This document shows positions 14,601 to 52,140 of a DNA stretch of 64,000 nt, piece after piece (position 1 is the first letter of the stretch; each line of letters opens with the position of its first letter). Made by a program: the position numbers and the translations under genes. Origin of the DNA: Manihot esculenta (taxonomy: Eukaryota; Streptophyta; Magnoliopsida; Malpighiales; Euphorbiaceae); contig NC_035176.2 of NCBI RefSeq assembly GCF_001659605.2, positions 20,709,890 to 20,773,889 on the forward strand, read 5' to 3'. The notes under the pieces are model-generated. The model ran no database searches and had not been told where the DNA came from. It saw nothing but the letters and a program-made list of their open reading frames with translations.

Positions 14601-14903
14601 AGATTTCTGGCACAAGTGAGTTGCTGTTTCAGCAAACCACCAGCAGAGGAAAAGGAGGCAGAAGCTTGTTTGCCCAAACAAGCTATGCAGATTGTACAAA
14701 AAAATTGCTATTTGCCCAAACAGCAAGAGAAGACAGACTCCTGTTTGCCCAAACAGCATCCAGCAGAACAGAAAGGTGCAGAACCAGATTTGAAACCCCT
14801 TCCTGGACACTTGAAATACATGTACCTTGGAGCCAAAAAGACACATCCAGTAATAGTGTCAAATCAATTAAGTCGAAGAAGAGAGCCTCCTACAAGTACT
14901 TAG
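11610..14903 (+). CDS. Element 2 Gag-protease polyprotein (1097 aa)
   Basis: Begins [19 protein letters not shown], as in elements 3 and 8. Residues 1-160 are low complexity. The Gag core spans about 165-345 ([40 protein letters not shown]). A zinc knuckle [14 protein letters not shown] lies at 399-412. The conserved patch [17 protein letters not shown] near 618 precedes the aspartic protease, whose active site is DLGAS (721-725) with ILLGRP near 795-800. The last 200 residues are a linker carrying many CLPKQ or CLPKQTGQT repeats (also at 566-600), each the translation of the GTTTGCCCAAAC inverted-repeat word. The frame ends at 14903 in a 5-base deletion relative to element 3 (38230-38260), which shifts it off the RT frame. 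It is otherwise intact over 3.3 kb. Confidence 0.92.
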
Positions 14904-16380
14904 AAAGCATAAAGGAGCCATTGGATGGACCATAGATGACATAAAAGGAATTTCGCCTGCCACATGTATGCATAAGATACACATGGAAGAAGATTGCAAG
15001 CCTGTCCGAGATGCTCAACGGAGGCTGAACCCCCCCATGATGGAGGTGGTGAAAAAGGAGATAATCAAGCTCCTTGATGCAGGAATCATCTACCCAATCT
15101 CTGATAGCAAATGGGTAAGTCCTGTATATGTAGTCCCGAAGAAAATTGGAATCACCATTGTTCCAAACTCCGAGGGAGAACTCGTTCCAACTCGTGTTCA
15201 GAATGGGTGGAGAGTATGCATGGACTATAGGAAGCTAAATGCAGCAACAAGGAAGGACCACTTCCCTTTACCTTTCATTGACCAGATGCTAGAGAGGCTT
15301 GCAGGAAAGTCACACTATTGCTGTTTGGATGGGTATTCAGGATTTTATCAGATTCCAGTGGCCCCAGAAGACCAAGAAAAGACTACCTTCACTTGTCCTT
15401 TTGGCACCTTTGCATTTAGAAGGATGCCATTCGGACTATGCAATGCACCTGCCACCTTCCAACGCTGTATGATGAGCATATTTTCTGATTATGTGGAGAA
15501 AATCATTGAAGTCTTCATGGATGACTTCACGGTGTATGGTAACTCCTTCGAAGAATGCCTTGCCAATCTGGAAAAGATCCTACAGAGATGCCTTGAATCA
15601 AATCTTGTGCTTAACTATGAAAAATGCCACTTCATGGTTAACCAAGGGTTGATCCTAGGCCATGTTGTTTCAGCCAAAGGAATTGAAGTGGACAAAGCCA
15701 AGGTGGACACCATAAAAAATCTACCTTACCCCACAAATGTTAGAGACATCCGCTCCTTCCTTGGCCATGCAGGATTCTATAGAAGATTTATAAAGGATTT
15801 CTCCAAAATCACACAACCATTATGCAGATTGCTCCAACAAGATGTACCATTTGATTTTGATGCAGATTGCAAGACAGCGTTTGATCTGATCAAGGAATTA
15901 CTGGTGACTGCCCCAATCATTCAAGCACCAGATTGGAACTTGCCCTTTGAAATCATGTGCGATGCAAGCAACTACGCTGTGGGGGCAGTCTTGGGACAAC
16001 GAGTGGGCAACACACCCCATGTGATTCACTATGCATCCCGAACTCTAGACGCTGCCCAAAGCAACTACTCAACAACAGAAAAGGAGCTCCTAGCCGTTGT
16101 CTTTGCTTTAGAAAAATTTAGACCATACCTCCTGGGGACCAAAGTTATAATTTACTCAGACCATGCTGCCTTGAGATACTTGATCAAGAAAAAAAAAGCC
16201 AAACCAAGACTCATTCGATGGATCTTGCTCTTACAAGAATTTGACCTGGAGATACGAGACAAGAAAGGGAAGGAAAACCTAGTAGCTGATCACCTAAGCC
16301 GGCTTCTTACTGATCCTGAACCTTGTGCAATAAAAGAAGATTTTCCGGACGAACATCTGTTCGCTTCCCAGCTAGCTTAG
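14872..16380 (+). CDS. Element 2 reverse transcriptase-RNase H
   Basis: The frame opens at 14872 and overlaps the Gag-protease frame by about 30 bases. The first Met is at 14968. Counting from that Met (470 aa), conserved RT blocks are [33 protein letters not shown], the catalytic box FMDDF (183-187) and the chromovirus-like connection [15 protein letters not shown]. RNase H has CDAS (Asp 332), EKELLA (371-376), YSDHA (Asp 398) and ADHLSR (441-446). All key acidic residues are present, so the enzyme looks functional if translated, which needs a frameshift or a fresh start. The protein ends at [12 protein letters not shown] and stop. In complete Athila elements integrase would follow here without a break. 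Nothing integrase-like follows. Confidence 0.92.
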
Positions 16381-16394
16381 TAGTTTATCTTAAA

Positions 16395-16397
<3 letters not shown>

Positions 16398-16427
<30 letters not shown>
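16398..16427 (+). repeat. 30-base poly(A) run at the missing-integrase point
   Basis: An uninterrupted run of 30 A starts 17 bases after the RNase H stop codon. It stands where integrase would be in a full-length element. Confidence 0.9.
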
Positions 16428-16429
<2 letters not shown>

Positions 16430-17240
16430 AGAGATATGTGACCGTTTGCCCAAACAGCATGGGCAAACAACCAGGAGTGCAGAAATCAGTACCATAACCC
16501 ACTTCCAGGTTTTTAGTTATTTTGCAGGTTAAAGTTGGATGACCAATCTGTTTGCCCAAACAAACTGGGCACACAGCGGAGATCAACTCAGCAAAAGGAT
16601 GGGATACTGTCTGCCAACACAGCAAGCTACCTGTTCGACCAGCTTGTTTGCCCACACAGCTGGGCAAACAACAAGCCTTCAGACAGAATGCTGCAGAAAT
16701 TCCGCCTGTTCGACCAGCCTGTTTGTCCAAACAGCTGGGCAAACAAACAGACCAGTGCAAGAGAAGAATGCCAGATTAGACCACAAAATCACTGTTCGAT
16801 CGAGCTGTTTGCCCAAACTGACTGGGCAAACACCCAAGGCAGCAACAGCAACAAGGAAGAAATCCTAAACAGGGCAGTACCTTCTTCATCTTTATTCAAT
16901 GTTCCATTATGCCCTTCCTATAACAACTCTTCTTCTTCTCAAAACTTCTTGTTGCTGCACAAAATGGACAACACCTTTTGCAATTTTTGCAATTTTCTGC
17001 TGTCCTACTGCATCACAGCATGTTTGGGCATCACACAAACAGCACCAGTGGGCCAATCAGCAACATACCAAGCTGTTTGCCCACACAAGCTGGGCAAACA
17101 CCAGCAGGCCAACCACAAACGCAGCAGTACACCAGACCAGCACAACCTACCACCTGCACACAGAAATGCCTAAAGCCAGCTGTTTGCCCAAACAGCACAG
17201 GGCAAACAGCCACACCAGGGAAGTACCAGTTTTTCTTCTT
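16428..17240 (+). repeat. Array of GTTTGCCC..GGGCAAAC hairpins in the element 2 3' region
   Basis: At least seven copies of an inverted repeat with arms GTTTGCCC and GGGCAAAC, or one-base variants, lie near 16443, 16549, 16648, 16720, 16805, 17072 and 17181. Loops are 5-10 nt (often AAACAGC plus 0-4). Spacing is irregular, about 70-110 bp with one gap near 250. Open frames through the area are only translations of the repeat. The same word is in the LTR and inside the gag-protease gene. Confidence 0.88.
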
Positions 17241-17261
17241 TTGAACTTTAATTTTTCCATA

Positions 17262-17296
17262 CATTGAGGACAATGCATAATTTAGGTGTGGGGGTG
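17262..17296 (+). promoter_or_regulatory. Element 2 internal hairpin plus second polypurine-like tract
   Basis: CATTG-AGGA-CAATG (17262-17275) is followed 7-8 nt later by TTAGGTGTGGGGGTGCATA. The G-rich core equals the true PPT at 18163-18177. The same module stands at 42237, 45912, 49490-49519 (minus) and 57712-57740 (minus). Confidence 0.78.
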
Positions 17297-18137
17297 CATA
17301 TCTCTGAATTTTACTTTTAAGTTTATTTTTGCTTTAATCTTTAGTTTGCTTGCATTAGGAAATTTTTTTTTTTTTTTTTTAATTTTTGTTATGCTTTCAA
17401 TAATACACACACAACCACAACCAACCTTCTTCTTCTTTTTGGTTTGCTTTACTCAAATACATAGGCTATGTTGGATGAGCCTTCTTTCCATGACCCCATT
17501 GACGTGATAACTCTTTAAACCTAAGTTGAATCACTTGTAGTGAGTTGCATTCGCTTTTGGGAATTTCCTTTTGAATTAAATCCTTGAGCTTGCCATGGTG
17601 AAAAACATACTGATGACCCTCAATCGATTGAGAAAAAAAATTAAATTTGTGTGAATGAACTTAATGTGACTTGATTTAGCAATTGGTGTTGATTTGCCCA
17701 AATCATTGAGAGAAAGAAAATTCAGCAAAGGCAAAGACCTCAAAAGCACAAATTGAAAATTGTTCTAATGGTCAAAAGACTATGAACAAGGCTAGTAGCC
17801 ACTTGGATAGGTGATCAACTGAAAATCTAAACCCTCAAATCAAAAATAGGTTGGTGACCTTTCCAAGCAAGATCTAAAGTGCAAAAGCCTGAATAAAGTA
17901 CTTCAAGGTAAGGGCAAGTCAATCCAAAAGCTAGAAAAAGTCTTAACATATAATGTGCATGATCTCTCTTGAGGAAAACAAATCCTAGCCATGGTAAGTA
18001 AAGGGAAACAAGGAAAAGAGGAAAGTAACCTTGGTGCATGCACACTTCACTACAATGCTTCAAAGTAGGGGTCTAGGGTATGAGCTTAAGTGGTAATAAG
18101 GATCAAGTGGAAAAAGAAGCTTGTTTGACTAAACCTA
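17297..18137 (+). other. Conserved non-coding 3' region of element 2
   Basis: No coding sequence is seen. Between the two hairpin-PPT modules runs a block that is well conserved in all five Athila elements: a phrase near 17465-17520 (GGCTATGTTGGATGAGC, CCATTGACGTGATAACTC), GAGCTTGCCATGGTGAAAAA, GCAATTGGTGTTGATTTGCCC, and GACTATGAACAAGGCTAGTA with GCCACTTGGATAGGTGA. Conservation without an open frame suggests a cis-acting RNA role. This is the position where some Athila elements carry an env-like ORF, but none is visible here. Confidence 0.6.
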
Positions 18138-18177
18138 TTTGCTTGAGGACAAGCAAAGGGCTAGGTGTGGGGGTATT
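18138..18177 (+). promoter_or_regulatory. Element 2 terminal hairpin and polypurine tract
   Basis: TTTGCTTG-AGGA-CAAGCAAA (18138-18157) is a perfect 8-bp stem. After four bases comes TAGGTGTGGGGGTATT, directly abutting the 3' LTR at 18178. Confidence 0.88.
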
Positions 18178-19755
18178 TGATAGAGCCAAAATTAGACCCA
18201 TTTTCTATGTTTATATTTATGTCAATTTACACATTTTCTACCTAACTTTGTGGTTTTTGTCTTATTTTGTAGGAAATGGAGCAAAATGGTAATTTGGCTA
18301 AAATGGCCTTAATTCTGCCCAAAAGACAGCAAAAGAGAATAAGCATGGTTTGCCCAACTTGATTGCCCAAGCCAAGGAGAAGCTGAGATAAAGAGGAAAA
18401 AGTGATAAAGTATGCTGTCCAGACTGTTTGCCCAAACAGCACTGGGCAAACAGCAAAGAAAGTCAGAAACAGAGCATATACAGCCAACAGTGGTCCCAGA
18501 CAGCCTGTTTGCCCAAACAGCGACGGGCAAACAGCACCAGCAGGCAAAAAACCAGCAGAATCTGTCAAACTTGCTGACCAAGTCAACACGAATCCCCACG
18601 CACTCCAAACACGTGGGACAGCTCAGAAACACCTATTTACACCTCAGCACACTCTCCTACATATTCAGGAAGCCAAGAAATAAAAAGACAAGAATGCCCT
18701 CCAAGAATTCAAGACTAAATAGGAAAAAGAGTCCCAAACTAAAAAGGAAAATTAGGGCAGCCTCTTCACCTATAAAAAGGCATGCAAACCAGCAAAGAAG
18801 ACATCCTGGAATTCGGGGGGACTATCCTTGGATCAAGAAACCTTCGGCAGAATCACCACAGCAGCTGCGCCCTTGCGCCAGCCCTTGTTTTCTTTATTTC
18901 TTGTTTTCTTTCCTTACTTTTATGTTAGTTTCAGCCATGAGTGGCTGAAACCCTTTAATCTAGTTGAAGTTTGGTGAAACTAAGGTTGTTCAAAGGGTTG
19001 TGAGATCTGAACAGAAAGTTTTGTCTTTGATTTTATTCAATATTCATGCAATTGTGCTTAATTCTAAGATTGCTTTGTTGTTTTGATCAAATTGGCCACT
19101 TGACTCTTAATTGCAAAGATAATTGACTGTTGATTAGGATATTTGTTAGTCCGTAATTGCTGAAAATATTCTGATCTAAGAACACTTGGTGTAAAAACCA
19201 AGAAATTGCATGATCTAACATCATCTCATACGTTTGAGTAGTTAGGGTTTGGGTCTTTCTTGTTCTTCATGCAATTGGCAATTGTTTTGATGCCTTTGGC
19301 CCAAGGACGTTCCTTGGCAATTTGTTGATTAGTAATTGGTTAGAGGACGTTCCCTAATCAATTTGTTCATAAGGAAAGACATGGTGGTGAGAAGCGTCTT
19401 CCACCTCCATAACCAACCTATTGAATCAATCAAGATAACCTTGTTTCAATGATCAATCCAAACAACCAAAGTGGATCCATATCTTCAACTAGACTTTTCT
19501 CATATTGATTTCCCTCTTATTTTAGATTACTTGCTGTTCAATTACTTTTAATAGATATTAGTTGAATCAAATCTTTAAAACCCCCAATTTTACTTTTATT
19601 GTTTCTTTATTGTTTCTTTGTTTACTTGGTCTTGATAAGGAGAATAAATAGTATTGATTCCCTGTGGATACGATCCCTTTACCACTATCTACAAGTTATT
19701 AAGTTGTTGGTAACCAAAAGGGTTATTTTTGACCGGCCTCGACAACCGACTGTCA
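18178..19755 (+). repeat. Element 2 3' LTR
   Basis: 1578 bp, equal in length to the 5' LTR. Differences noticed by eye include AGCACTGGG versus AGCATTGGG, GGTCCC versus GATCCC, GAGTGGCTG versus GAGTCGCTG, CAAAGATAA versus CAAAGGTAA, and GATCAATCC versus GATCAACCC. Confidence 0.95.
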
Positions 19756-19760
19756 ACCAT

Positions 19761-21797: not shown

Positions 21798-23221
21798 TGA
21801 TCAGTTCAAATTTAGATCATTGTATCATAATGTTATTAATGTTAATTTACACTTTTTCTGCCTAATTTATGGTTTTGATCTTATTTTGCAGAAAATGGTG
21901 TAAAAGGGTAATTTGGAGAAAATACTCTTAAAACTGCCTAAAAAGGGATAAAGGAGAACAAGTTTGTTGCCCAAGTCAAGTTGCAGCTAAAGTGAAGATA
22001 AATAAGGAAAGTGCTAAATAAGGAAAGTGGTAAATAAGGAAAGTACATCCAGCAGAGTAATTTGAAATTCAAATTTCAAATCTTCAAGAAGTCTTTCCCT
22101 TATTCAAGAAGCCAAATCTCAAGAAGATGCATATTCAAAATTCAAAATTCAAAATTCAGCTTGTTTAGGAAGCCAAATCTCAAAAAGACATACTTGCCTT
22201 CCAAGTAATCAAGATTCAAAATTCAAAATTCAAAAAAAGGCCTCCACCTCACAAGGAAACTTAGGGCAACAAATGCAACTATAAAAGGACAACATAAGTA
22301 GCCGCACGCCTCACTTTCCCTTGGACTCCACACATTCGGCCGCCGCACATCCTTCCTCTCCAAGCACCGCCGGTTCTTCTTGCTTCTTCTTTTCTTTTAT
22401 TTTGTGTTTTGTTTCAGCCATGAGTGGCTGAAACTCTTTTTTCTAGTTGAAGATTAGGTGAAACTTTAGTTGTTTTATGGATTGGGAGATCTGAACATAC
22501 ATTGTTTATCTTTTGTTTTCCAGTATTTATGCAATTTCATGCTTAATTCCATTGTTGCTTTGTTGTTTAGATCTATGTTGATTCTTGATTGGAAAGTAAT
22601 AATTTGTTAGTTTGGATAGTTTTGAGTCCGTAATTGCTTGAATTATTCAAACACAAGAACACTTGGTGTAAAAACTAAGAAAATTGCATGATCTAGCGAT
22701 ATCACCATACGTTTGGATAGCTAGAATTAGGTCTCTCTATTTCTTAATGCAATTGACAATTGTTAGATGCCAAAGGCCCAAGGACGTTCCTTGGCAACTT
22801 GTTGATTAGTGATTAATTAGAGGACGTTCCCTAATTGATTTATGCTTAAGGAGGGATATGGTGGTGAGAAGCGTCTTCCATCTCCATAACTAATTTATTG
22901 AATCAAACAACGGAACCTAAGTATCAATGATCAATCCCAACAACTGAAGTGGATCCAATTCTTCAATTAAAGCTTTTCTCATATTTGAATTTCTTTACTT
23001 TAATTATTTGCTTTAATTTATTGCTTTCAATATTAGTTTAACTCAATCAATCTCAAAACCCCCCCTTTTATTTTACTTTCAGTTTAATTTCTTGGTCTTG
23101 ATAAGGAAAATAGGTAAGTATCAATTCCCTGTGGATTCGATCCATTTGCCACTATCTGCAGTTGTAAAATTGTTGATAACCAAAAAGGTTATTTTTGACC
23201 GGTTTCGACAACCGCACAGTA
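21798..23221 (+). repeat. Element 3 5' LTR (about 1424 bp)
   Basis: TATA box CTATAAAAGG at 22280-22289, conserved hairpin at 22411-22434, and twin hairpins with GGACGTTCC at 22778-22794 and 22817-22834. A short ATTCAAA microrepeat lies at 22133-22160. The terminus is altered (CACAGTA instead of the TGTCA-type end), so the end is placed by comparison with elements 2 and 7. Confidence 0.88.
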
Positions 23222-36041: not shown

Positions 36042-36046
36042 GAGCA

Positions 36047-37897: not shown

Positions 37898-38182
37898 AAA
37901 GATGAAGGAGGCCCAAAAGAGCCAAAACTGAAAGCAACAATCTGCTGCATTCAACAGGTGGACTGCGACCAAACGCAGAAAGTCAGAGGGCCATCCGCAC
38001 CTCTTCAGCTCAGATCGCAGGTCAGTTCCGCTAGACATCCAATGCAGATAGGCCATGTGCAAATGGAGCAAGCGGAATCCAGTTCAGCCAGACATCCAAT
38101 GCAGACAGACACCTGTTCGCCCAAAAAGTAGATTACAGATCAGAAAATTTCAGAACCAGATCTAAAGCCTCTTCCTGGCCAC

Positions 38183-38920
38183 TTGAAATATGTGTACCTT
38201 GGAGCTGAAAGGACACTTCCAGTGATAGTGTCAAATCAATTAAGCCAACATGAAGAAGAAAGCCTCCTAAAAGTACTGAATAAACACAAGGGAGCCATAG
38301 GATGGACCATAGATGACATCAAAGGCATCTCTCCCACCACATGCATGCATAGAATACACATGGAGGAGGAATGCAAGCCTGTCCGAGATGCTCAAAGAAG
38401 ACTGAATCCTCCTATGATGGAAGTAGTGAGAAAGGAGATAGTCAAGCTTCTGGATACAGGAATCATCTACCCAATCTCTGATAGCAAATGGGTAAGTCCT
38501 GTGCATGTAGTCCCAAAGAAAACTGGGATCACCATTGTACCAAACGCTGAAGGAGAACATGTTCCAACTAGAGTTCAGAATGGGTGGACAGTATGCATGG
38601 ACTATATGAAGCTAAATGCAGCAAGAAGGAAATATCACTTCACCTTACCTTTCATTGATAGGATGCTAGAAAGGCTTGCAGGTAAGTCCCACTATTGTTG
38701 TCTAGATGGTTTTTCAGGATTTTATCAAATTCCAGTGGCTCCAGAAGACCAAGAGAAGACCACCCTAACTTGTCCTTTTGGTACCTTTGCATTTAGAATA
38801 ATGCCATTTGGGCTATGCAATGCTCCTGCCACCTTCCAACGCTGTGTGATGAGCATATTTTCAAATTATGTGGCGAAAATCATTGAAGTTTTCATGGATG
38901 ACTTCACGGTGTACGGTAAC
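38183..38920 (+). pseudogene. Element 3 reverse transcriptase, first part
   Basis: Frame from MKYVYLGAERTLPVIVSN through the pre-RT linker ([19 protein letters not shown]), which here is in frame with RT, unlike in element 2. RT blocks run to [10 protein letters not shown] at 38920. Element 7 was inserted directly after this catalytic box. RT resumes at 45003 with the duplicated gtaac. Confidence 0.9.
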
Positions 38921-40611
38921 TGATATAGCATATTTTAGTCCACTTTATCATTATGTCTTGATGTTTATTTGCATCTTTTCTGCCTAATTTTGTGGTTTTA
39001 ATCATGTTTTGCAGATAATAGGTGTAAAGAGACAATCTGGAGAAAATGCTCTTAAAACTGCCAAAAAGTGCCAAATATGGAAAGTGCCAAATAAGGAAAG
39101 TTTTCAGATAAGGAAAGTGTCAAATAAGGAAAGTTTTCAAATAAGGAAACTGCAGAAGAAAAAACAAATAAGGAAAGCGCAGTCAGCAAATTATTTGAAA
39201 TTCAAATTGCAGATCTTTCTTTCCTTGTTTAAAGATGTGCAGACACCTCAGCAGTCAGATCTTCCTATTTAGGCAGCAAGATTTCAAGAAGACGCACTTG
39301 CCTCTCTTACATTAAGTATTTAAGATTTGAAATTCAAACGAAGGCTCCACCTAAAAAGGAAAGTCTGAACAACATATCTTTCCCTCTGCACAGCCCATCC
39401 GCGCGCTTCCTTCCTTCTGAAGAGCCAATCCGCGCGCCTCCTGCCTTCTCAAGACCTTGCAACGCGATTCTTTCCCTTTTAGACACAACTTGGGCAGCAA
39501 ATAAGGACCTAGGGCAACACTTTCAACTATAAAAAGACACATAAGGAGCCTCCCCATGCTTTTTCTACTCTCCCTTAGACACACCTACGGGATTGCAAGT
39601 GGCACCATCTCTTCTTCTTCCTTTCTTTATTTTTGGTTTTTGTTTCAGCCATGAGTGGCTAAAACCTTTTTTCTAGTTGAAGATTGGTTGAAACTTTGGT
39701 TGTTTTATGGATTGTGAGATCTAAACACACATTGTTTGCCTTTTGGTTATTCAATATTCATACAGTTCATGCTTGATTCTATTATTGCTTTGTTATTTTG
39801 ATCAAATTGGCCACTTGATTATTGATTGCAAGGTAATATATTATTAGTTTGGATAATTTTAAGTCCATAATTGCTTTGATTATTCAAACATAAGAACACT
39901 TGGTGTGAAAATTAAGGAAATTGTATGATCTAGCAACATCTCATGCGTTTGAGTAGTTAAGATTGGATCTCTCTCTCTCTTCATGCAGTTAACAATTGTT
40001 TGATGCCTAAGGCCCAAGGACGTTCCTTGGCAATTTGTTAATTAGTAATTAATTATAGGACGTTCCCTAATTGGTTTAATTATAAGGAGAGACATGGTGG
40101 TGAGAAGCGTTTCCATCTCCATAACTAATCTATTAAATCAATCAAAAGAACATAAGTTTCAATGATCAATCCCAACAACTGAAGTGGATTCAACTCTTCA
40201 ACTAGATCTTTCTCATATTTGATTTCTCTTTGTTTTTATTATTCGCTTTCTTTTATTGCTTTCAGTTAATTGAATCAATCTCAAACCCCCTTTTTACTTT
40301 ACTTGCAGTTTACTTTTATTTTGCTTTCAGTTTTTTTCGCTTTCAGTTTTTTTCGCTTTCCGTTTATTTTGCTTTCAGTTTATTTCACTTTTAGTTTATT
40401 TCGCTTTCAGTTTGTTTCGCTTTCAGTTTGTTTCGCTTTCAGTTTGTTTCGCTTTCAGTTATTTGCTTTCAGTTTATTTTCTTAGTCTTGATAAGGAAAT
40501 AGGTAAGTTATCAATTCCTTGTGGATTCAATCCTTTCACCACTATCTACAGTTGTAAAAGTGTTGATAACCGAAAATGTTATTTTTGACCGGCTTTGACA
40601 ACCGCAAGTCA
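38921..40611 (+). repeat. Element 7 5' LTR (1691 bp)
   Basis: TATA at 39528-39535, CAGCCA hairpin 39642-39665, twin GGACGTTCC sites 40014-40030 and 40063-40080. A 16-bp tandem repeat (TTTGTTTCGCTTTCAG) lies at about 40309-40483. Near the start, AATAAGGAAAGT-type repeats are present (39085-39180). Confidence 0.93.
40309..40483. repeat. 16-bp tandem repeat (CTTTCAGTTT type), about 10-11 copies
   Basis: The unit TTTGTTTCGCTTTCAG and one-base variants recur every 16 bp or so. The other LTR (44687-44870) has about two more copies, which accounts for most of the 36-bp LTR length difference. Confidence 0.88.
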
Positions 40612-40616
40612 AAAAT

Positions 40617-40631
40617 TGGCGCCGTTGCCGG
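40617..40631 (+). other. Element 7 primer-binding site (tRNA-Asp)
   Basis: TGGCGCCGTTGCCGG, five bases after the LTR end, then ATAA where elements 2 and 8 keep GGGA or AGA. Confidence 0.9.
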
Positions 40632-40863
40632 ATAATTGATTTAATTTATTTGTTTTTCTTTCAGGACCAAATCAGGAACAAAGCACCACCGAATCTGCCT
40701 CTGAAGAAGCCACCATCACAGATCCCATCTCTGAAGCCTCTCCATCGCACCATCAAGCTGCATATCCCACCTCTGAAACATCTCCATCGCACATCTCACC
40801 TTCTCTTCACATTCGAATTGCCCATCCTTTCACCAAAGCAAGACACCATCGCCGATCTGAATC

Positions 40864-41928
40864 ATGGATGAGGTAATTACATTTGTTCTCTATTCTCAAC
40901 TTTCTGAACTCACATCTGTTATGAAAGATTTTGCCATAGGACTAGCTCAACAGGCTCAAGCATCCCAGCCACCTAGGCCATGTGGGATTTGCGCATATGT
41001 AGGACATCCAACTGATCAATGTCTTACACTTTATGAGTATGACCAACCAGTGCATGCATTTGGAGGATTCAATAGTCAGCCTAGATATACATTTGGAGGA
41101 TTCTATGAACAGCTAAGACATGATCCCTACCATGACACATACAATCTAGGTTGGGGAGACTATCCAGACTTCAGTTATGCAGGGGCTAACGACTACCAGG
41201 ACTATCAAGGATATCAAGCCCAAGAAGCACCTCCAAGTTCCAATATGCACTTTGAAGAAATGGTAGAGACATTGGCAATTTATGTGCAAAGTCTCCAACA
41301 ACAGATGGGACAAATGGCCACCTCATTAAACGCAATCATGTTAAGAAGAGAGGAAGAGCTTCAAGATGTAAAGGATGATGGTGAAAGCTCGCAAGTACAA
41401 GAACAAGCTGCTGAAGAAACACAACAAGAATACTGTTTGTCCAAACAAACTAGTCAAATAGAACTTGTTGATAGTTTAGATATCATTGATTGTTTGAGCA
41501 AAGATGTTTTTGATATAAATCAAGATGATATACTAAACAATGATCTATATAGGGAAGAGAGCCAGAAAAAGCCAGAACTGAAAGAAACCGACTGTTGCAT
41601 CCAACAGGTGGACTGCAGCCATGCGCAAAATGAAGAAAGCTCAATCGCACCTCTTCAGATGAGTTCGCAGAAAGGCCTTGCGCAGGACAGTCCTGCAACA
41701 CTTCCAGTTGCACCTCTTCAGCTTCCATTGCATGAAACTCCTTCTAGCCTTCCATTGCAGACCAATCATGCGCAGAAGGAGCAAACTGAAACCAATTCAA
41801 CCATAGATCCAACGCAAACAACCCATGCTCATAAGGAACGAATGGTATTCCAAGCACCTAAACCAAAGGACCATGCAGATCAATGCCTACCCAAACCTCC
41901 GGATAAGGTAGAGTTTGTTTTGCCTTAA
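40864..41928 (+). CDS. Element 7 Gag-derived protein (354 aa)
   Basis: The normal Gag start is lost (CAGGACC replaces CATGACC near 40663) and the capsid core is deleted. Open from the Met at 40864: [15 protein letters not shown], a zinc knuckle [14 protein letters not shown] (residues 40-53), a duplicated FGGF patch, MATSLNAIMLRREEELQDV, one CLSKQT unit, then a jump over the whole protease to DIIDCLSKDVFDINQDD. The last 150 residues are a linker rich in Gln, Pro and His. It lies between two deletions that keep the frame, so the short protein may still be made. A nucleic-acid-binding role is inferred from the knuckle. Confidence 0.75.
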   Translation: MDEVITFVLYSQLSELTSVMKDFAIGLAQQAQASQPPRPCGICAYVGHPTDQCLTLYEYDQPVHAFGGFNSQPRYTFGGFYEQLRHDPYHDTYNLGWGDYPDFSYAGANDYQDYQGYQAQEAPPSSNMHFEEMVETLAIYVQSLQQQMGQMATSLNAIMLRREEELQDVKDDGESSQVQEQAAEETQQEYCLSKQTSQIELVDSLDIIDCLSKDVFDINQDDILNNDLYREESQKKPELKETDCCIQQVDCSHAQNEESSIAPLQMSSQKGLAQDSPATLPVAPLQLPLHETPSSLPLQTNHAQKEQTETNSTIDPTQTTHAHKERMVFQAPKPKDHADQCLPKPPDKVEFVLP

Positions 41929-41943
41929 TTCAGTACTAAATTG

Positions 41944-42162
41944 CAGCTAGCTATGGAGAAATATGAATTGAAGTTGGAAATGCTCAAAAATGCAAACATA
42001 AGGGCTAGAGGCACACCTCATCTGAAGGAGGAGAGGCTAATCATGTTACTTCATGAGTACATGGAAAAAATAGGATGGGTAATGACCAAATCAAAAGGAG
42101 TGCTACACTTTTCACTCATGCAATTGGGACCCTTTTCCCTTCCCCAATTACTTGAGCCTTGA
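41944..42162 (+). pseudogene. Element 7 relic of the pre-RT linker
   Basis: A short frame with KYELKLEMLKNANIRARGTP and HLKEERLIMLLHEYMEK, then IGWVMTKSKGV. It lines up with the pre-RT linker of element 3 ([19 protein letters not shown]) and stops exactly where RT would begin. A near-identical relic stands at 58098-58313 in element 9. Confidence 0.68.
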
Positions 42163-42236
42163 TCAAGTGGATCGCACCATGCACACCACACCCAGGGGAG
42201 TAATCAGTTTTCTTTTGCATTTTAATATTTCCTATA

Positions 42237-43275
42237 CATTGAGGACAATGCATGATTTAGGTGTGGGGTGCATATCTCTAAATCTTTTCCTTTTAGTGCA
42301 TATCTCTAAATCTTCTCCTTCTTCTTCTTTTCCTTTCAATTTTCTACGAAATTTTTTCCTTTTTTTTCCTTTCAGAATTGCGATTTTTCTTTCAGTTTTT
42401 CCTTTCAGATTTGCAATTTTCCCTTTTGTTTCAGTTCATGCGATTTTTTTTTCTTTCAGTTTGTTTTCATTTATGCTTTCAATAACACACACAACCACAA
42501 TCTTCTTCTTTTTGTTTTGCTCTACTCAAACTGATAGACTATGTTGGATGAGCTACTCTTTCCATAACCCCATTGATGTGATGACTCTTTAAACTTATGT
42601 TGAATCAACTGCAGTGAGTTGTATTCATATTTGAGAATTACCTTTTGAATTGAATCTTTGAGCTTGCCATGGTGAAAAATGTATTGATGACACTCATTAG
42701 AGAGAATGAATTGAAAGTTGTGTGAATGGACTTAACATGACTTGTTTTAGCAATTGGTGTTGATTTGCCCAATGCATTGATTAAAGAAATTCAGCAAAGG
42801 CTTAGACTTCATGAGCACAAATTGAAAACTGTTCCAATGGTTGAAAGACTATGAACAGAGCTAGTAGCCACTTGGATAGGTGACCAACTGAGTAACTGGG
42901 GGTGGGTATCACCAATATGTACCTTCACGTCAAAAGCTTGGTGACTTTTTCAAGCAAAACTTAAGTGCAAAAGGCTGAATATAGTACTTCAAGGTAAGGG
43001 CAAATCACTCTGAAAGCTTGAAAAAGTCTTAATTGAATAAGAACATGTGCATGTGTAATCTCTCTCTTGAGGAAAATAAATCCTAGCCATGGTAAGTAAA
43101 GGGAAACAAGGAAAGAAGGTGAGTAATCTTCATGCTTATATTCTTCACTGCAATAATTCAAAATAGGTGTCTTGAGTAAGAGCTTAAGTGGAAATAAGGA
43201 TCAAGCAACAAAGAAAGCTTGTTTGACTAAGTTTATTTGCTTGAGGACAAGCAAAAGGCTAGGTGTGGGGATATT
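42237..43275 (+). promoter_or_regulatory. Element 7 3' non-coding region with two hairpin-PPT modules
   Basis: Internal module: CATTG-AGGA-CAATG (42237-42250) then TTAGGTGTGGGGTGC. Terminal module: TTTGCTTG-AGGA-CAAGCAAA (43236-43255) then TAGGTGTGGGGATATT against the LTR. Between them is the block shared with other Athila elements, with no open frame. Confidence 0.82.
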
Positions 43276-45002
43276 TGATAGAGCATATTTTAGTCCATTT
43301 TATCATTATGTTCTTGATGTTTATTTGCATCTTTTCAGCCTAATTTTGTGGTTTTAATCATGTTTTGCAGATAATAGGTGTAAAGAGACAATCTGATGAA
43401 AATGCTTCTAAAACTGCCAAAAAGTGCCAAATATGAAAAGTGCCAAACAAGGAAAGTTTTCAGATAAGGAAACTGTCAAATAAGGAAACTGTCAAATAAG
43501 GAAAGTTTTCAAATAAGGAAAGTGCAGAAGTAAAAACAAATAAGGAAAGCTCAGTCAACAGATTATTTGAAATTCAAATTGCAGATCTTTCTTTCCTTGT
43601 TTAAAGATGTGCAGACACCTCAGCAGTCAGATCTTCCTATTTAGGCAGCAAGATTTCAAGAAGACGCACTTGCCTCTCTTGCATTAAGTATTTAAGATTT
43701 GAAATTCAAACGAAGGCTCCACCTGAAAAGGAAAGTCTGAACAGCATATCTTTCCCTCTGCATAACCCATCCGCGCGCTTCCTTCCTTCTGAAGAGCCAA
43801 TCCGCGCGCCTCGTTCCTTCTGAAGACCTTGCAACGCGATTCTTTCCTTTTCATACACAACTTAGGCAGCAAGTAAGGACCTAGGGCAACACTTTCAACT
43901 ATAAAAAGACACATAAGGAGCCTCCCCATGCTTTTTCTACTCTCCCTTGGACACACCTACGGGATTGCAAGTGGCACCATCTCTTCTTCTTCCTTTCTTT
44001 ATTTTTGATTTTTATTTCAGCCATGAGTGGCTAAAACCTTTTTTCTAGTTGAAGATTGGTTGAAATTTTGGTTGTTTTATGGATTGTGAGATCTGAACAC
44101 ACATTGTTTGTCTTTTGGTTATTCAATATTCATACAGTTCATGCTTGATTCTATTATTGCTTTGTTATTTTGATCAAATTGGCCACTTGATTATTGATTG
44201 CAAGGTAATATATTGTTAGTCTGAATAATTTTAAGTCTGTAATTGCTTTGATTATTCAAACATAAGAACACTTGGTGTGAAAACTAAGCAAATTGTATGA
44301 TCTAGCAACATCTCATGCGTTTGAGTGGTTAGTATTTGATCTCTCTCTCTCTTCATGCAGTTAATAATTGTTTGATGCCTAAGGCCAAAGGACGTTCCTT
44401 GGCAATTTGTTAATTAGTAATTAATTAGAGGGCGTTCCCTAATTGGTTTAATCATAAGGAGAGACATGGTGGCGAGAAGCGTTTTCCATCTCCATAACTA
44501 ATCTATTGAATCAATAAAAAGAACATAAGTTTCAATGATCAATCCCAACAACTGAAGTGGATCCAACTCTTCAACTAGAACTTTCTCATATTTGATTTCT
44601 CTTTATTTTTATTATTCGCTTTCTTTTATTGCTTTCAGTTAATTGAATCAATCTCAAACCCCCTTTTTTACTTTACTTGCAGTTTACTTTTATTTTGCTT
44701 TCAGTTTATTTCACTTTCAGTTTGTTTTGCTTTCCGTTTATTTCGCTTTCAATTTATTTCGCTTTCAGTTTATTTCGCTTTCAGTTTGTTTCGCTTTCAG
44801 TTTGTTTCGCTTTCAGTTTGTTTTACTTTCAGTTTGTTTCGCTTTCAGTTATTTGCTTTCAGTTTATTTTCTTGGTCTTGATAAGGAAGATAGGTAAGTT
44901 ATCAATTCCCTGTGGATTCGATCCTTTCACCACTATCTACAGTTGTAAAATTTGTGATAACTGGAAATGTTATTTTTGACCGGCTTCGATAATCGCAAGT
45001 CA
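43276..45002 (+). repeat. Element 7 3' LTR (1727 bp)
   Basis: Starts TGATAGAGCATATTTTAG and ends CGCAAGTCA. Same modules as the 5' LTR, with more 16-bp repeats at 44687-44870. Confidence 0.93.
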
Positions 45003-45844
45003 GTAACTCCTTTGAAGAATGCCTTGCCAATCTGGAAAAGATCCTACAGAGATGCCTTGAATCAAATCTTGTACTTAACTACGAGAAATGCCACTTCATG
45101 GTCAACCAAGGTTTGATCGTAGGCCATGTTGTTTCAGCTAAAGGAATTGAAGTGGACAAAGCCAAGGTGGATACCATCAAAAATCTGCCTTGCCCCACAA
45201 ACGTTAGAGAGATCCGCTCTCTCCTTAGCCATGCAGGATTCTACAGAAGATTCATAAAAGATTTCTCCAAAATCATACAGCCATTATGCAGATTGCTCCA
45301 GCAAGATATAACATTTGATTTTGATGCAGGTTGCAAGACAACATTTGATCTGATAAAGGAATTACTTGTGACTGCCCCAATCATTCTGCCACCTGACTGG
45401 AACTTGCCCTTTGAAATCATGTGTGGTGCAAGCAACTACGCTGTGGGGGCAGTCTTGGGGCAATGTGTAGGGAACTCACCTCACATGATTCACTATGCAT
45501 CTCGCACATTGGACGCTGCCCAAAGCAACTATTGAACAATAGAAAAGGAGCTCTTGGCTGTTGTATTTGCCTTAGAGAAATTCAGACCATACCTCCTGGG
45601 GACCAAAGTCATAGTTTACTCAGACCACGCAGCTTTGAGATACTTGATCAAGAAAAAGGAGGCAAAACCGAGACTCATTCGGTGGATTCTGCTATTACAA
45701 GAGTTTGATCTGGAGATACAAGACAAGAAAGGAAAGGAGAATCTAGTGGCTGATAACCTAAGCTGACTTTCCACTAGTTCTGCACCATGCCCAATCAAGG
45801 AAGACTTTCCAGACAAATATCTGTTCGTCTCTCAGCTTGCTTAA
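45003..45844 (+). pseudogene. Element 3 reverse transcriptase end and RNase H
   Basis: Continues from 38920 ([17 protein letters not shown]). The connection [12 protein letters not shown] is intact. RNase H has CGAS instead of CDAS, so its first catalytic Asp is lost, then a TGA at 45533-45535, then [14 protein letters not shown] and [10 protein letters not shown], and ADNLS with another TGA at 45765-45767. It ends KEDFPDKYLFVSQLA and stop, the same end as element 2. No integrase follows. Confidence 0.9.
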
Positions 45845-46667
45845 TGGATCGCACCACACAAACCACACAAGGGGAGTACTCAGTTTCCTTTGAACTTTAA
45901 TATCTCTAATACATTGAGGAAAATGCATGAATTAGGTGTAGGGGTGTATATCTCTGAATATTTATTTTTAAGTCTTCCATTTTTGCTTTAATTTTTAGTT
46001 TGAATGCATTAGGTGAATCTTTTTTTCATTTTTGTTATTGTTGCTTTTAATGCACACACATGTGGCCAAAGTTCTTTTTTCTGTTTTGATATACTTTACT
46101 CAAACACATAGGCTACATTGAATGAGCTTTCTTTCCATGAACCCATTGATGTGAAGACTCTTTAAACCTAAGTTGAATCAATTGCAGTGAGTTGTATTTT
46201 TTGGAAACTTCCTTTTGAATTGAATCTTTGAGCTTGCTATGGTGAAAAATATATGACATTACTCATTAGAGAGAATAATAAATTGAAAGATGTGTGAATA
46301 ATGAAACATGACTTATTTTAGCAATTGGTGTTGATTTACCCAATTCATTGAGAGAAAGAAATTCAGCAAAGGCAAAGACTTTAAAAGCACAAATTAAAAA
46401 CTGTTCCAATGGTCAAAAGACTATGAACATAGCTAGTAGCCACTTGAACAGGTGACCAACTGAGTAACTGGGGGTGGGTATCACAAATATGTACCTTCAC
46501 GTCAAAAGGTTGGTGACTTTTTCAAGCAAGAATAAAGTGCAAAAGGCTAAATAAAGTGCTTCAAGTAAAGGCAAATCACTCCGAGAGCTAGAAAGAGTCT
46601 TAACTGAACAAGAATATGTGCATGTATAATCTCTCTCTTGAGGCAAACAAGTACTAGCCATGGTAGG
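45845..46667 (+). other. Element 3 3' non-coding region
   Basis: No gene. Contains the internal hairpin-PPT module, slightly decayed (CATTG-AGGA-AAATG at 45912-45925, then TTAGGTGTAGGGGTG), and the block conserved among Athila elements (GGCTACATTGAATGAGC, GCAATTGGTGTTGATTTACC, GACTATGAACATAGCTAGTA). It is cut at GCCATGGTAGG by element 9 and continues at 60610. Confidence 0.75.
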
Positions 46668-46786
46668 TGATAGCGGTTGTCAAAGCCGTTAAAAATAAAC
46701 TTATTATCAATCAACAAAATAATTTATAGATAGTGGCAATAGGGTCGAACCACAGGGATTTGACACTAGAGATCTTCCTAGTTATG

Positions 46787-48542
46787 TGACTTGCAGTTGT
46801 CGAAGCCGGTCAAAAATAACCTTTCCGGTTATCAACAATTTTACAACTGCAGATAGTCATAAAGGATCGAATCCACAGAGAATTGAATACTTATCTATTT
46901 TTCCCAACAAGATCAAGAGAATCAACTGGAAGCACAACTGAAAGCAAGTAACTGAAAGCAGAATAAAAGTAAAGTGCAATAAAGTAAAAAAGGGGGGTTT
47001 TGAGATTGATTTGACTAACAACTATTGAAAGCAATTAAATCAGCAAGTAATTAAAATAAAATAGGAAATCAATATAAGAAAGGTCTAGTTGAAGATATGG
47101 ATCCACCTTGGTTGCTTGGATTGATCATTGAAACTTATGTTCTCTTGATTGGTTCAATAGATTAGTTATGGAGGTGGAAGACGCTTCTCACCACCATGTC
47201 TCTCCTTATGATTAAATCAATTAGGGAACATCCTCTAATCAATTACTAATTAAAAAATTGCCAAGGAACGTCCTTGGGCCTTAGGCATCAAAACAATTGT
47301 CAATCGCATGAAGAAAGAGAGAGATCCAATCCTAGCTACTCAAACGCATGAGATGTTGCTAAATCATACAATTCCTTAGTTATTACACCAAGTGTTCTTA
47401 GGTCAGAATATTTCTAGCAATTACGGACTAAAAAATATCCCAACTAACAATCAATTAACTTTACAATCAAGAATCAAGTGGCCAATTTGATCAAAATAAC
47501 AAAGCAATCATGGATTCAAACACACTATTGCATGAATATTGAACTAATCAAAGAGAAATAGTTTATGTTCAGATCTCACAATCCCTAAAACAACCTTAGT
47601 TTCAACCAATCTTCAACTAGAATTAAGGGTTTCAGCCACTCATGGCTGAACCAAAACATAAAATTAAAGAAAATAAGAGGAAAGAAGAACCGACGGTGGA
47701 GAAGAGAGGTGGAGATCGGCGGCCAAACTTCCTTGGCCGAATGGGGGTGATCAATTCTGCCACTTCTTGTCTTCTTAAGGCCTTTAAATATGTCTTGAGA
47801 GGCTGCCTAAGGTTTCTTGGCAGTCCATGAGTCTTTTGGAGGCTTCCCAAAATGCCCTTGGTCCAATATGTGCCTTCTATGTGCATGTGTGAAGGGAAAA
47901 ACGTGGAGCATGTATCAAATTGCAAGGGATGGGCTCTTTGGTCTTTCACTTGCTGCCCAAGGTCTTCAAGATGTTGCCCAAGTGTGTTCAAGTTGCTGCC
48001 CAAGGTGCCTCTTCACATTCCCTTGCCGCCCATTCACAATTAAGGAAGGTGGAGCCTCATTTTGCAATTTGAATTTTGAATGTGCAAGGCATGAAGTGGG
48101 AAACATGTGACCTTTGGATTTGGCTTCCTTAATAAGCTGGATCTTGAAATCCAAAATCTGAATATGAATCTTGGAGATTTGAATTTCAAAATACTTTCCT
48201 CATTTGGCTCTCCATATATGGTAGCTTGAGATATGGATTCGTGAATAAGGAAAAGGCTACTTGGAGATTTGAAATTTGAATTTCAAATTGGCTTGGCTGA
48301 ATGTTCTTTCCATATTTACCACTTTCCTTATTTAGAAATTTTCTTATTTAGCTTGACTTGATTTCAACTTGGCAGGCTTGCTCCCTTTTGCTCCAAATAA
48401 GGCAGTTTTAGGGGGATTTTCTCCAAAATGTCCTTTTACACCATTTTCTGCAAAACAATGTCAAGAGTACTAAATTAAGCAGAAATCATGTAAATAATCA
48501 TCAATAATATCAAGATAAAAAGGACTAAAATATGCTCTATCA
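46787..48542 (-). repeat. Element 8 3' LTR (1756 bp)
   Basis: Contains twin ACGT hairpins on the minus strand (47221-47237 with one change, 47261-47277), the CAGCCA hairpin (47628-47652), a TCGGCGGCC word (47700-47720) and TTGCCCAAG repeats (47955-48005). Confidence 0.94.
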
Positions 48543-49587: not shown

Positions 49588-50865
49588 TTAGGCAAAAGGA
49601 TGTTGTAGTGGAATTTCTTCCACCACTTGTACTGTGAATCCTTCAAAGTATGGTTTCAGACGATGTCCATTTACCTTGAAGATTTTTTCAGTCTCTATGC
49701 TTTGGATGTCTACAGCTCCATGTGGGTAGGCATGCTCTACAATGAATGGTCCAATCCACCTAGACTGTAGCTTTCCTGAAAATAATTTCAAACGAGAGTC
49801 AAAGAGTAAGACTTTATCACCAACCTCAAATTGTTTTCTTGAAAGATGACTGTCATGGGAGGCTTTGGTTTTTGTTTTGTAGTTCCAAGAATTCTCATAT
49901 GCATCTCGTCTTATTTCCTCTATCTCTTGCAGTTGTAGTTTGCGATGGTGGCCAGCTTCCTTAAGGTCCATGTTGCAGTTCTTTACAACCCAATAGGCCT
50001 TGTGTTCAAGTTCAACTGGAAGGTGGCAAGCTTTTCCATAGACCAACCTGTAAGGAGACATACCTATGGGAGTCTTGTAGGCTGTTCTGTAGGCCCATAA
50101 AGCATCTTCTAATCTTGTACTCCAGTCCTTTCGGTTAGGAGACACGGTCTTTTCAAGGATGGCCTTCATTTCTCTGTTGGACACTTCAGCTTGCCCATTT
50201 GTCTGAGGGTGGTATCCTGTGGATGTTCTATGGATCACATTATGCTTTCTGAGAAGGCTTTCGACTACCTTATTGCAAAAATTGGTCCCTCTGTCACTGA
50301 TGATTGCCTTTGGTACTCCATGTCTAGCAAAGATGTTGGTCTTCACAAAGTCTACTACTGCCTTGGCATCATCAGTCTTAGTTGCTCTAGCTTCCACCCA
50401 TTTGGACACATAATCCACTGCAAGGATGATGTAAGTGTATCCAAAGGATGGTGGGAATGGGCCCATGAAGTCTATGCCCCAAACATCAAATACCTCACAG
50501 ACCATGATGGGGTTTTGTGGCATTTGATTTCTTTTGCTCAGATTTCCAGTCTGTTGACACCTAGCACATGATTTGCAAAACAGAAAAGCATCTCGAAAAA
50601 TAGTGGGCCAGAATAGGCCACTTTCAAGCATCTTATGAGCAGTCTTTCTTGGACCAAAGTGTCCACCACAACTATATGAATGACAAAAAGTAAGCACATA
50701 AGCTATTTCTTGGTCAGGAATACATCTCCTTATCATTTGATCAGCACAATGTTTCCACAGATATGGCTCATCCCAAACATAGTATTTGGCATCTTTCTTT
50801 ATCTTATCCTTGGTGTGCTTTGGCATGTCAGAAGGTAAATTACCTGTAGCCAAGTAGTTCACCAT
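49588..50865 (-). CDS. Element 8 integrase (425 aa from first Met)
   Basis: It joins retroelement cDNA to host DNA. From the Met at 50865: lead-in [20 protein letters not shown], zinc-binding HHCC (H62, H69, C100, C103), the catalytic core with Asp 132 (GIDFMGP), Asp 191 (SDRGTNF) and Glu 227 (NGQAE), 35 residues between the last two, then [27 protein letters not shown] split over the usual spacing, and a C-terminal domain ([32 protein letters not shown]). All key residues are present and there is no internal stop. The frame is open upstream to a TAA at 50956-50958, beyond which the protease-linker frame continues in phase. Confidence 0.93.
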
Positions 50866-50955
50866 GTTTGCGTACCATGGTTCATCAGATTGAGCAAGGA
50901 AGATTTGTTCAAGTAGGTCGTTCTTACATTCTTCAGATTCTAAAAGGTGTTGCTC

Positions 50956-52140
50956 TTAGCTTGATAGCAATGGAGGTGGCAAAGAACTGGATTCAGAATC
51001 TTCCTTTTGCGCATGATCTGACTGCAAAGGCGGACTGGAAGAGCTTGCTTGCGTTGGAGGCTGTGGAGCAAGGTTCGGAGGCCAAAGGATGGCTGAGTTC
51101 GGCGGCCGAAGGGAGGTGGAGTTCGGCGGCCGAAAGGCAGTGTCTTCAGTCTGCACAAGGCTTTCCTGCAGGGGTGCAACAGAGTTTTCTTCATCCTGCG
51201 CTTGCTTGCAATTTACCTGTTGGACACTATAGACTGTCTCTTTCAGTTTTGGTTCTTTCTGACTCTCAGTCCTGCAAAGATCATCATTCAGAACATAATC
51301 TTGATTCTCATCAAATATTTCCTGGCTCAAGCAGTCTATAATATCAAGACCATAGACAGGGGACATATCATGTGGATATTTCATGGCATCATAGACATTA
51401 AACTTAATCACTTCCCCTTCAAACTCCATAGTGAGAGTACCATCATGCACATCAATCTTAGTTCTAGCAGTACTCAAGAAAGGACATCCAAGAAGGATAT
51501 CAGAACTAGCATTGCAACTATCTTCCTTAGTATCAATCACATAAAAATCTATAGGAAAGACAAGTTCATCTACTTAAACTAACACATCTTCTAGAACACC
51601 TATGGGATATACCACAGATCTATCAGCTAATTGAATCACAACTCTTGTGTCCTTTAGTGCACATGCATTCAGAGATTTATAGATGGAAAGAGGCATGACA
51701 TTTATGGATGCACCAAGATCACACATGGCTTTCTTAATTCCAACATTCCCAATCTTGCAAGAGATAGCAAACATACCTTTGTCTTTGCATTTAGTAGGGA
51801 GTTCTCTTTTAATCACAGTAGTAACAACTTCACCTACACTTACTTTTTCTCTCTCAGCTAGCTTTCTTCTATTGGTGCAAAGTTCTTTTAGAAATTTTGC
51901 GTACCTGGGAATCTGCTTAACAACATCTAGTAGTGGTATGTTGATTTTCACTTTTCTGAAAGTCTCAAGAATCTCCTTTTCTTCCTTTTCTTTTTGTGTT
52001 CTTTCAAATCTTTTTGGAAAAGGAGGTGGAATGTGAAAACGTACCTTTGGATCAGTCTTCTGCGCAGGTGGTGTTTCAAATTGCGCTGGAGAGGCTTCAG
52101 GTTGCCTTGGCTTTGGCGCAACTTGTGTTTCAGAATGCAC
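50956..52140 (-). pseudogene. Element 8 protease and linker
   Basis: Readable from [17 protein letters not shown] through [15 protein letters not shown] to the active site [14 protein letters not shown], a TAA at 51574-51576 (a Gln codon in relatives), then [16 protein letters not shown], with Cys replacing Arg in the LLGRP motif. The linker after [11 protein letters not shown] carries FRPPN / LRPPN / LWPPN units, which are translations of the TTCGGCCGCCGAA word. It ends at TAA 50956-50958, after which [15 protein letters not shown] and [16 protein letters not shown] lead into integrase. RT and RNase H, about 470 residues in element 2, are missing. Confidence 0.87.

What the first reader, a model, noticed from the sequence alone, without database searches (positions are those of the whole stretch)
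14872..50958. Complementary half-elements: RT without integrase, and integrase without RT
Seen: element 2 (14872-16380) and element 3 (38183-38920 plus 45003-45844) encode RT-RNase H ending at the same point (..SQLA stop) with no integrase after it. Element 8 encodes gag, protease and integrase in one frame (52140-49588), with RT-RNase H missing exactly between the protease linker and the integrase lead-in. Elements 2 and 3 have different LTR families yet share the same end, so integrase loss looks ancestral. Element 2 and element 8 have intact TSDs and equal-length LTR pairs, so both moved in this state. Inference: the two types may form a split, mutually helping pair, with matching primer sites (tRNA-Asp) and PPTs.
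Basis: partly seen in the sequence, partly recalled or inferred. Interest (0 to 1): 0.88.

Follow-up and report, generated by a model that had tools for sequence, protein, structure and literature searches.

The report
Retrotransposon halves: RT-only and integrase-only families
In a plant genome, two related families of jumping genes have each lost a different essential enzyme, one the integrase and the other the reverse transcriptase, yet both kept moving and kept the remaining enzyme in good repair, which suggests that they borrow the missing part from relatives.

Summary
E2 (9981-19755) and E3 (21798 to window end, nested) are Athila-type Ty3 elements with Gag, protease and RT-RNase H but no integrase. 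Their identical terminus (SQLA stop) ends at integrase's own stop codon: one shared in-frame deletion. E8 (46787-55493, minus) has Gag, protease and integrase without RT. A cassava protein (P0241) crosses the same protease-to-integrase junction, so E8's state looks like a family trait. E2-E3 RT is under strong purifying selection (Ka/Ks 0.09, Ks about 0.55). At conserved residues E2 RT deviates at 1 of 205 and E8 integrase at 5 of 143. E2 is a mosaic: E8-like gag, more E3-like protease. The types have therefore exchanged sequence, probably by co-packaging.

Corrections: E8 is not one open frame (gag is in another frame; stops lie in gag, protease and before integrase). E2 has a pro/RT frameshift. 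TSDs alone do not show that the elements moved in this state.

Not shown: that the two types help each other. Full-length relatives exist in other plants, and the host genome could not be searched. Verdict: two semi-autonomous families, a new variant of a known kind; mutual dependence is possible but unproven.

The parts
9981..11558 (+). E2 5' LTR (TSD ACCAT at 9976-9980)
11564..11581 (+). E2 primer binding site, 5 nt after the LTR (tRNA-Asp by comparison with Diaspora/Calypso in PMC1142308)
11592..14903 (+). E2 gag-protease ORF (1103 aa); gag part E8-like, protease part nearer E3
14872..16380 (+). E2 RT-RNase H ORF (502 aa), ends SQLA-stop, no integrase; out of frame with gag-pro
16381..17209 (+). 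E2 insert after the stop: A-rich start plus copies of a TTTGCCCAAAC-N4-TGGGCAAAC palindrome
17210..18177 (+). E2 3' region with PPT-like GTGTGGGGGTATT at its end
18178..19755 (+). E2 3' LTR (TSD ACCAT at 19756-19760); 5 differences in 1576 aligned sites from the 5' LTR
21798..23220 (+). E3 5' LTR (end approximate)
36041..37953 (+). E3 gag (rest) and protease, after the insertion 23747-36040
38132..38920 (+). E3 RT, first part, interrupted by element N
38921..45002 (+). Element N (TSD GTAAC), same lineage; gag part only, no protease-core, RT or INT hit in tblastn
45003..45844 (+). E3 RT (rest) and RNase H, ends SQLA-stop; the stop aligns with the integrase stop of E8
45845..46668 (+). E3 3' region, directly continuous with the deletion junction
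62987..64000 (+). E3 3' LTR, cut by the window end
46787..48542 (-). E8 3' LTR (TSD CATAA on the minus strand, 46782-46786)
49588..50955 (-). E8 integrase ORF (455 aa): zinc-binding and core domains
50845..51075 (-). E8 protease-linker to integrase junction (RT-RH absent), aligned without a gap to cassava P0241; in-frame stop at 50956-50958
51259..52131 (-). E8 protease region, in-frame stop at 51574-51576
52163..53686 (-). E8 gag (different frame from protease; two stops near the N-terminus)
53738..55493 (-). E8 5' LTR (TSD at 55494-55498); PBS match at 53719

Best explanation
These are two old semi-autonomous Athila-type (Ty3/Metaviridae) families of a flowering plant, probably of the spurge family. 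One (E2/E3) lost integrase by a single in-frame deletion running from the RNase H-integrase linker to the last two codons of integrase. The other (E8, cassava P0241) lost RT-RNase H by an in-frame deletion running from the protease linker to the same RNase H-integrase linker. Each lineage kept Gag, protease and its remaining enzyme. Inferred mechanism: RNAs of several such families, sharing Gag, primer site, PPT and LTR ends, are packaged in mixed virus-like particles. RT from one source copies both, integrase from another inserts both, and template switching between co-packaged RNAs makes mosaics such as E2. Shown here: structures, shared junctions, conservation of the retained enzymes, mosaicism. 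Inferred: mixed particles, and who supplies the missing enzyme (each other, a full-length copy, or both; rivals 1 and 2 below are the two readings of that last point).
For: Shared E2/E3 junction with the stop aligned to integrase's stop. The junction-proximal 105 nt are the most diverged window (75%), so the junction was not recently copied across. Ka/Ks E2-E3: RT first part 0.092 (Ks 0.58), RT-RH second part 0.091 (Ks 0.54), protease 0.063 (Ks 0.77); 0 of 500 bootstraps with Ka>=Ks in each. E2 RT-RH departs at 1 of 205 columns that are at least 95% conserved, E8 INT at 5 of 143; 5 is about what 1.4 My of decay after insertion would give (my arithmetic). P0241 of Manihot crosses the E8 junction with no gap there, 34 of 37 residues identical in the integrase lead-in. 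E2 gag/protease mosaic: 118 of 145 sites E8-like left of the break, 60 of 212 right; 0 of 2000 permutations; E2's gag falls in the E8/Manihot clade and its protease does not. E2 inserted about 0.12 My ago at 1.3e-8.
Against: Only two RT-only copies, and one INT-only copy plus one cassava gene model, were seen. P0241 carries just the first 37 residues of integrase before its model diverges and ends; the other three Manihot proteins (P0242-P0244) stop before the junction and say nothing. None of the 360 fetched proteins (best 120 of each of three capped lists) ends in [QPH][LF]A as E2/E3 do. In the protease tree E2 and E3 are not sisters: E3 joins the E8/Manihot clade at support 0.84 and E2 lies outside. 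E2 has a pro/RT frameshift and E8 several stops, so these copies are not themselves competent. The conserved-column test favours its own references, which define the columns. Comparable losses in a second, degraded family in the same window show that half-elements can also arise as plain decay.
Confidence: 0.75

Rival explanations
1. Both half-types are ordinary parasites of full-length relatives elsewhere in the genome, which supply all enzymes; the retained RT or integrase is conserved through cis-preference or recent origin, and the two halves do not help each other.
For: Full-length relatives are common in other plants: 42 of the best 120 gag-pro homologues have RT and INT; Euphorbia lathyris P0247 has RT 78% identical to E2 plus integrase sequence. 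Known Athila and wheat cases are described this way.
Against: No full-length copy among the five of this lineage in the window (E2, E3, E8, N, E7). Mere parasites have little reason to keep RT at Ka/Ks 0.09 over Ks 0.55 (inference).
Confidence: 0.45
2. The two families are a mutually dependent pair: RT-only particles get integrase from INT-only copies and the reverse, with no full-length helper needed.
For: Complementary in-frame losses meeting in one linker, shared cis signals, recombination between the two types, both retained enzymes conserved.
Against: All of this is equally expected if a full-length helper serves both; the genome could not be searched.
Confidence: 0.2
3. Private deletions in dying copies: the structures are coincidental decay of unrelated insertions.
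For: Neighbouring elements N and E7 lost most of pol, and copies A and B of another family lost the INT core and RT respectively.
Against: E2 and E3 share one junction across Ks 0.55; E8 shares its junction with a cassava protein; E2 inserted about 0.12 My ago with RT near-perfect.
Confidence: 0.08

Closest known systems
Non-autonomous Athila families of Arabidopsis (Marco and Marin 2008, PMC2410132; abstract, passages and section 5 read)
   Same: Athila lineage; whole families lacking pol functions, ORFs under purifying selection, recombination between families, proposed cooperation
   Different: In section 5 the non-autonomous Athila have Gag or Gag+Env and lack both RT and INT; RT-only and INT-only families are not described in what I read
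[quoted passage not shown] passages, sections 12 and 17 read)
   Same: Semi-autonomous families with intact Gag-Pro, conserved PBS and LTR ends, long-term co-evolution, called a cooperative complex
   Different: Partners keep at most Gag-Pro; a full-length autonomous partner (Wilma) is proposed; no split of RT from INT in what I read
RLG_Cereba / RLG_Quinta of einkorn wheat (PMC11302176; abstract and passages read)
   Same: Two families sharing cis signals, cross-mobilised, one contributing a needed protein
   Different: One partner is fully autonomous; [quoted passage not shown]
Retand clusters Alopecurus myosuroides 2 and 3b (PMC11963269; section 11 part 1 and passages read)
   Same: Recently active clusters, in a lineage classified by RT, with GAG and AP but listed in Table 1 as RH NO and INT NO (55 and 43 copies); that they keep RT is my inference, the table has no RT column, and the text speaks of one such cluster
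   Different: Lack RH as well as INT; no complementary INT-only family reported in what I read
BARE-2 of barley (as described in PMC9744471 section 17)
   Same: Loses one protein and presumably uses a relative's
   Different: Loses Gag; keeps the other genes

Membership tests
Athila lineage (Ty3/Metaviridae) | Closest relatives by Gag, RT and INT are plant Athila-type Ty3 polyproteins | tested here: inconclusive
   Pfam Retrotrans_gag, RVT_1, RT_RNaseH, H2C2, rve; best hits are plant gag-pol proteins. The lineage name rests on recalled Gag/RT resemblance plus the PBS; no tree with named Athila references was built
Athila lineage (Ty3/Metaviridae) | tRNA-Asp primer site starting 5 bp after the LTR | tested here: met
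   E2, N and E8 carry the same 14-mer 5 nt after the LTR; tRNA-Asp assignment from PMC1142308 passages on Diaspora and Calypso, not tested against a tRNA here; E3's site is decayed
Autonomous (full-length) Athila-type element | Single gag-pol ORF with both RT and INT | tested here: not met
   No window copy holds both RT and INT; env-like ORFs were not looked for
Semi-autonomous LTR retrotransposon | Incomplete protein set but conserved retained ORFs, and transposition in that state | tested here: met
   Ka/Ks 0.06-0.09, conserved-column test, shared junctions, young E2 insertion
Autonomous/non-autonomous partner pair (five criteria, PMC9744471 section 13 passage) | Similar PBS and LTR termini | tested here: met
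   (E3 PBS excepted)
Autonomous/non-autonomous partner pair (five criteria, PMC9744471 section 13 passage) | Some conservation of LTR promoter sequence | tested here: inconclusive
   Of nine 150-column stretches, E2-E8 LTR identity is 50-66% in the first four, 80-93% in the next four and 71% in the last; promoters not located
Autonomous/non-autonomous partner pair (five criteria, PMC9744471 section 13 passage) | Matching insertion ages and sub-family structure across the population | not testable with these tools
   host genome search did not complete
Split mutualistic pair | Each half supplies the enzyme the other lacks | not testable with these tools
   needs particle or transposition experiments

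The most novel reading that the evidence does not exclude
A bipartite LTR retrotransposon: the pol functions of one Athila-type lineage have been divided for millions of years between two complementary semi-autonomous families, one carrying RT-RNase H and the other integrase, which persist only by sharing particles and occasionally recombining, with no full-length helper left in the host.
Probability: 0.15. Interest if true: 0.9.

Novelty: new variant of a known kind. Interest (0 to 1): 0.62.

Why it matters
In the papers read here, non-autonomous plant retrotransposons lack RT and INT together (or RH and INT), or lack Gag. Here the two enzymes are separated in different families, and each remaining enzyme seems to have stayed under selection after the loss of the other. 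This gives a natural system for asking whether retrotransposon families cooperate or only parasitise: integrase of one type and RT of the other can be followed separately by their sequences. It also points to a blind spot: surveys that find and classify elements by their RT cannot see an integrase-only family at all.

Tried and rejected
Private-deletion reading: rejected because E2/E3 share one junction across Ks 0.55 and E8 shares its junction with cassava P0241.

Recent copying of the junction between E2 and E3: rejected because identity falls, not rises, towards the junction (95% to 75%).

E8 as an intact gag-pro-INT frame (reader): rejected.

Other gene models as further INT-only cases: P0163 (Malus) and P0236 (Rhodiola) join protease to integrase without RT (2 of the best 120 INT hits), but at other points and possibly through predicted introns; not counted. 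Of the best 120 gag-pro hits, 17 join gag-protease to part of integrase without RT; in all 17 the aligned part is C-terminal (starting at residue 334-389 of E8 integrase; eight looked at). This is another loss type, not the E8 type. Full census by thresholds (120 proteins): RT and INT 42; neither 26 (P0241 among them); partial INT only 17; partial RT only 16; RT with partial INT 9; RT only 5; both partial 3; partial RT with INT 2. Of the five 'RT only', none ends like E2/E3.

Splicing as origin of the in-frame deletions: considered, not testable without a progenitor sequence.

Viral contig scans: no pattern match for E2 RT; 30 pattern matches for E8 INT, none encoding a relative. Taxonomy has no entry beginning Athila. 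Eight paper searches for integrase-less, non-autonomous or complementary families listed no RT-only/INT-only pair by title or abstract start; only the top of most result lists was shown and only five papers were opened.
Full report
WHAT IS THERE. The window is a nest of plant LTR retrotransposons. Self-comparison, LTR borders and protein searches give five copies of one Athila-type lineage: E2 (9981-19755, TSD ACCAT), E3 (the outer element, 21798 to beyond the window end, interrupted at 23747-36040, by N inside its RT, and by a cluster from 46782 to 62837), N (38921-45002, TSD GTAAC), E8 (46787-55493, minus strand, TSD CATAA) and E7 (about 55497-60648, minus). None of the five holds both RT and integrase.

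THE TWO HALVES. E2 and E3 have Gag, protease and RT-RNase H. Their ORFs stop at SQLA, 4 residues beyond the HLF(A/V) motif of the RNase H-integrase linker, where full-length relatives run on into integrase. The DNA shows why: E3's stop codon and what follows align to the integrase stop codon and 3' flank of E8. So integrase was removed in frame, up to about its last two codons, and the ORF ends at integrase's own stop. E2 has the same junction, followed by an 0.8-kb insert. E8 has Gag, protease and integrase; RT-RNase H is missing between the protease linker and the RNase H-integrase linker. Against four reference proteins the two breakpoints meet in one linker, the retained parts overlapping by roughly 4-18 residues: E2 to P0016:543 and E8 from P0016:535; P0071 445 and 428; P0008 599 and 596; P0005 567 and 561.

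E8 is not a single open frame: gag is in another frame, in-frame stops lie at 51574-51576 and 50956-50958, and two more lie near the gag N-terminus. E2's RT ORF is out of frame with gag-pro by a 5-nt length difference relative to E3. TSDs and equal LTRs alone do not show that a deletion preceded insertion.

DID THEY MOVE IN THIS STATE? For E2/E3 yes: the same junction in two separate insertions whose RT genes have a synonymous distance Ks of 0.54-0.58. The last 105 nt before the junction are 75% identical against 86-95% further upstream in the same half, so the junction was not recently copied between them. [quoted passage not shown] this is crude and probably an upper figure. For E8, cassava protein P0241 (MANES_02G221020v8, 906 aa) continues from Gag-protease through the same linker into the same integrase lead-in, with no gap at the junction, 34 of 37 residues identical in the lead-in, although the Gag segments are only 71% identical. 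The cassava model diverges and ends soon after, so its full integrase is not seen, and a gene model may hide introns. Three more Manihot proteins end before the junction. LTR ages by K2P: E2 0.12, E8 1.40, N 1.77, E3 1.95 million years.

WERE THE KEPT ENZYMES USED? Ka/Ks between E2 and E3 is 0.092 and 0.091 for the two RT-RH pieces and 0.063 for protease, with 0 of 500 bootstraps at or above 1 in each. At columns at least 95% conserved among 130-154 roughly de-replicated relatives, E2 departs at 1 of 205 (RT-RH), E8 integrase at 5 of 143, E3 at 8 of 95 and 9 of 116; the relatives have medians of 1-3, but they define the columns, so their counts are favoured. E8's 5 departures are about what neutral decay since its insertion would produce (my arithmetic), so its integrase was probably sound when it inserted.

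THE TWO TYPES RECOMBINED. Along gag, E2 is closest to E8; along most of protease, to E3. Of 357 sites where E2 agrees with exactly one of them, 118 of 145 left of the best break favour E8 and 60 of 212 right of it; 0 of 2000 permutations reach this. Protein trees agree in part: in gag E2 falls inside the Manihot clade (0.97) which joins E8 (1.0) with E3 outside; in protease E8 joins the Manihot proteins (0.99) without E2, but E3 joins that clade at 0.84 and E2 lies outside, so E2 and E3 are not sisters there. Template switching between co-packaged RNAs is the usual explanation of such mosaics (established knowledge; PMC9744471 section 17 names it for LTR exchange). So RNAs of RT-only and INT-only lineages, or their near ancestors, probably shared particles. 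This also helps explain how the integrase-less pol module came to sit with two LTR families.

HOST. The four best gag-protease hits are Manihot esculenta proteins (80-85% identity). In a tree with 60 relatives E2's RT groups (0.96) with a clade of Euphorbia lathyris, Gossypium and Hibiscus proteins. A spurge-family host is an inference.

WHO SUPPLIES THE MISSING ENZYMES? Not resolved. Shared primer site, PPT and LTR ends permit cross-use. Full-length relatives exist in other plants (42 of the best 120; P0247). The host genome search was tried seven times and never answered.

CONTEXT. Arabidopsis Athila families without pol (PMC2410132 section 5) and wheat Gag-Pro families (PMC9744471 sections 12, 17) lack RT and INT together. 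Retand clusters of Alopecurus listed with GAG and AP but neither RH nor INT (PMC11963269 section 11) are the nearest precedent found for an RT-bearing, integrase-less family. The eight paper searches named under Tried and rejected listed no RT-only/INT-only pair. I therefore rate this a new variant of a known kind. A caution: a degraded pair of another Ty3 family in the same window shows similar losses (A at 2949-9980 minus keeps RT-RH remnants and lacks the INT core; B at 24051-33600 keeps INT, with an LTR-like piece in place of RT), without evidence that either spread in that state.

Noticed in passing
   Followed up: partly
48 sites, mainly 4.1-5.1, 20.6-21.6, 24.2-25.1, 28.6, 30.5-31.3, 35.0-35.9, 61.8-62.7 kb; also 51098, 51122, 53510: A dispersed short palindrome of the TTCGGC-N-GCCGAA class (48 matches to a set of close variants; no chance expectation computed) crowds LTR-like repeats of one family and also appears in E8.
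   Followed up: partly
13310, 13385, 14303, 14477, 16445, 16551, 16808, 17076; similar sequence near 10222 and 18419: E2 carries a different dispersed palindrome, TTTGCCCAAAC-N4-TGGGCAAAC (8 plus-strand matches with up to 3 mismatches), in its gag-pro ORF and in the insert after RT, with similar sequence in its LTRs.
   Followed up: partly
17 of 120 proteins (e.g. P0258, P0267, P0271, P0316, P0330): Citrus, Gossypium, Handroanthus and Diospyros proteins, and one from an unnamed source (P0271), join gag-protease to a C-terminal part of integrase (56-120 aligned residues) with RT and the integrase core missing: another recurrent pol loss, though gene models may hide introns.
   Followed up: partly
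38921-45002 and 55497-60648: Copies N and E7 lack the protease core, RT-RH core and integrase; both keep a diverged stretch resembling the RT N-terminal lead (BLAST hit in E7; by eye in N), suggesting a third non-autonomous type.
   Followed up: partly
2222-2952: Tandem repeat of period about 81 bp next to the first LTR fragment.
   Followed up: no
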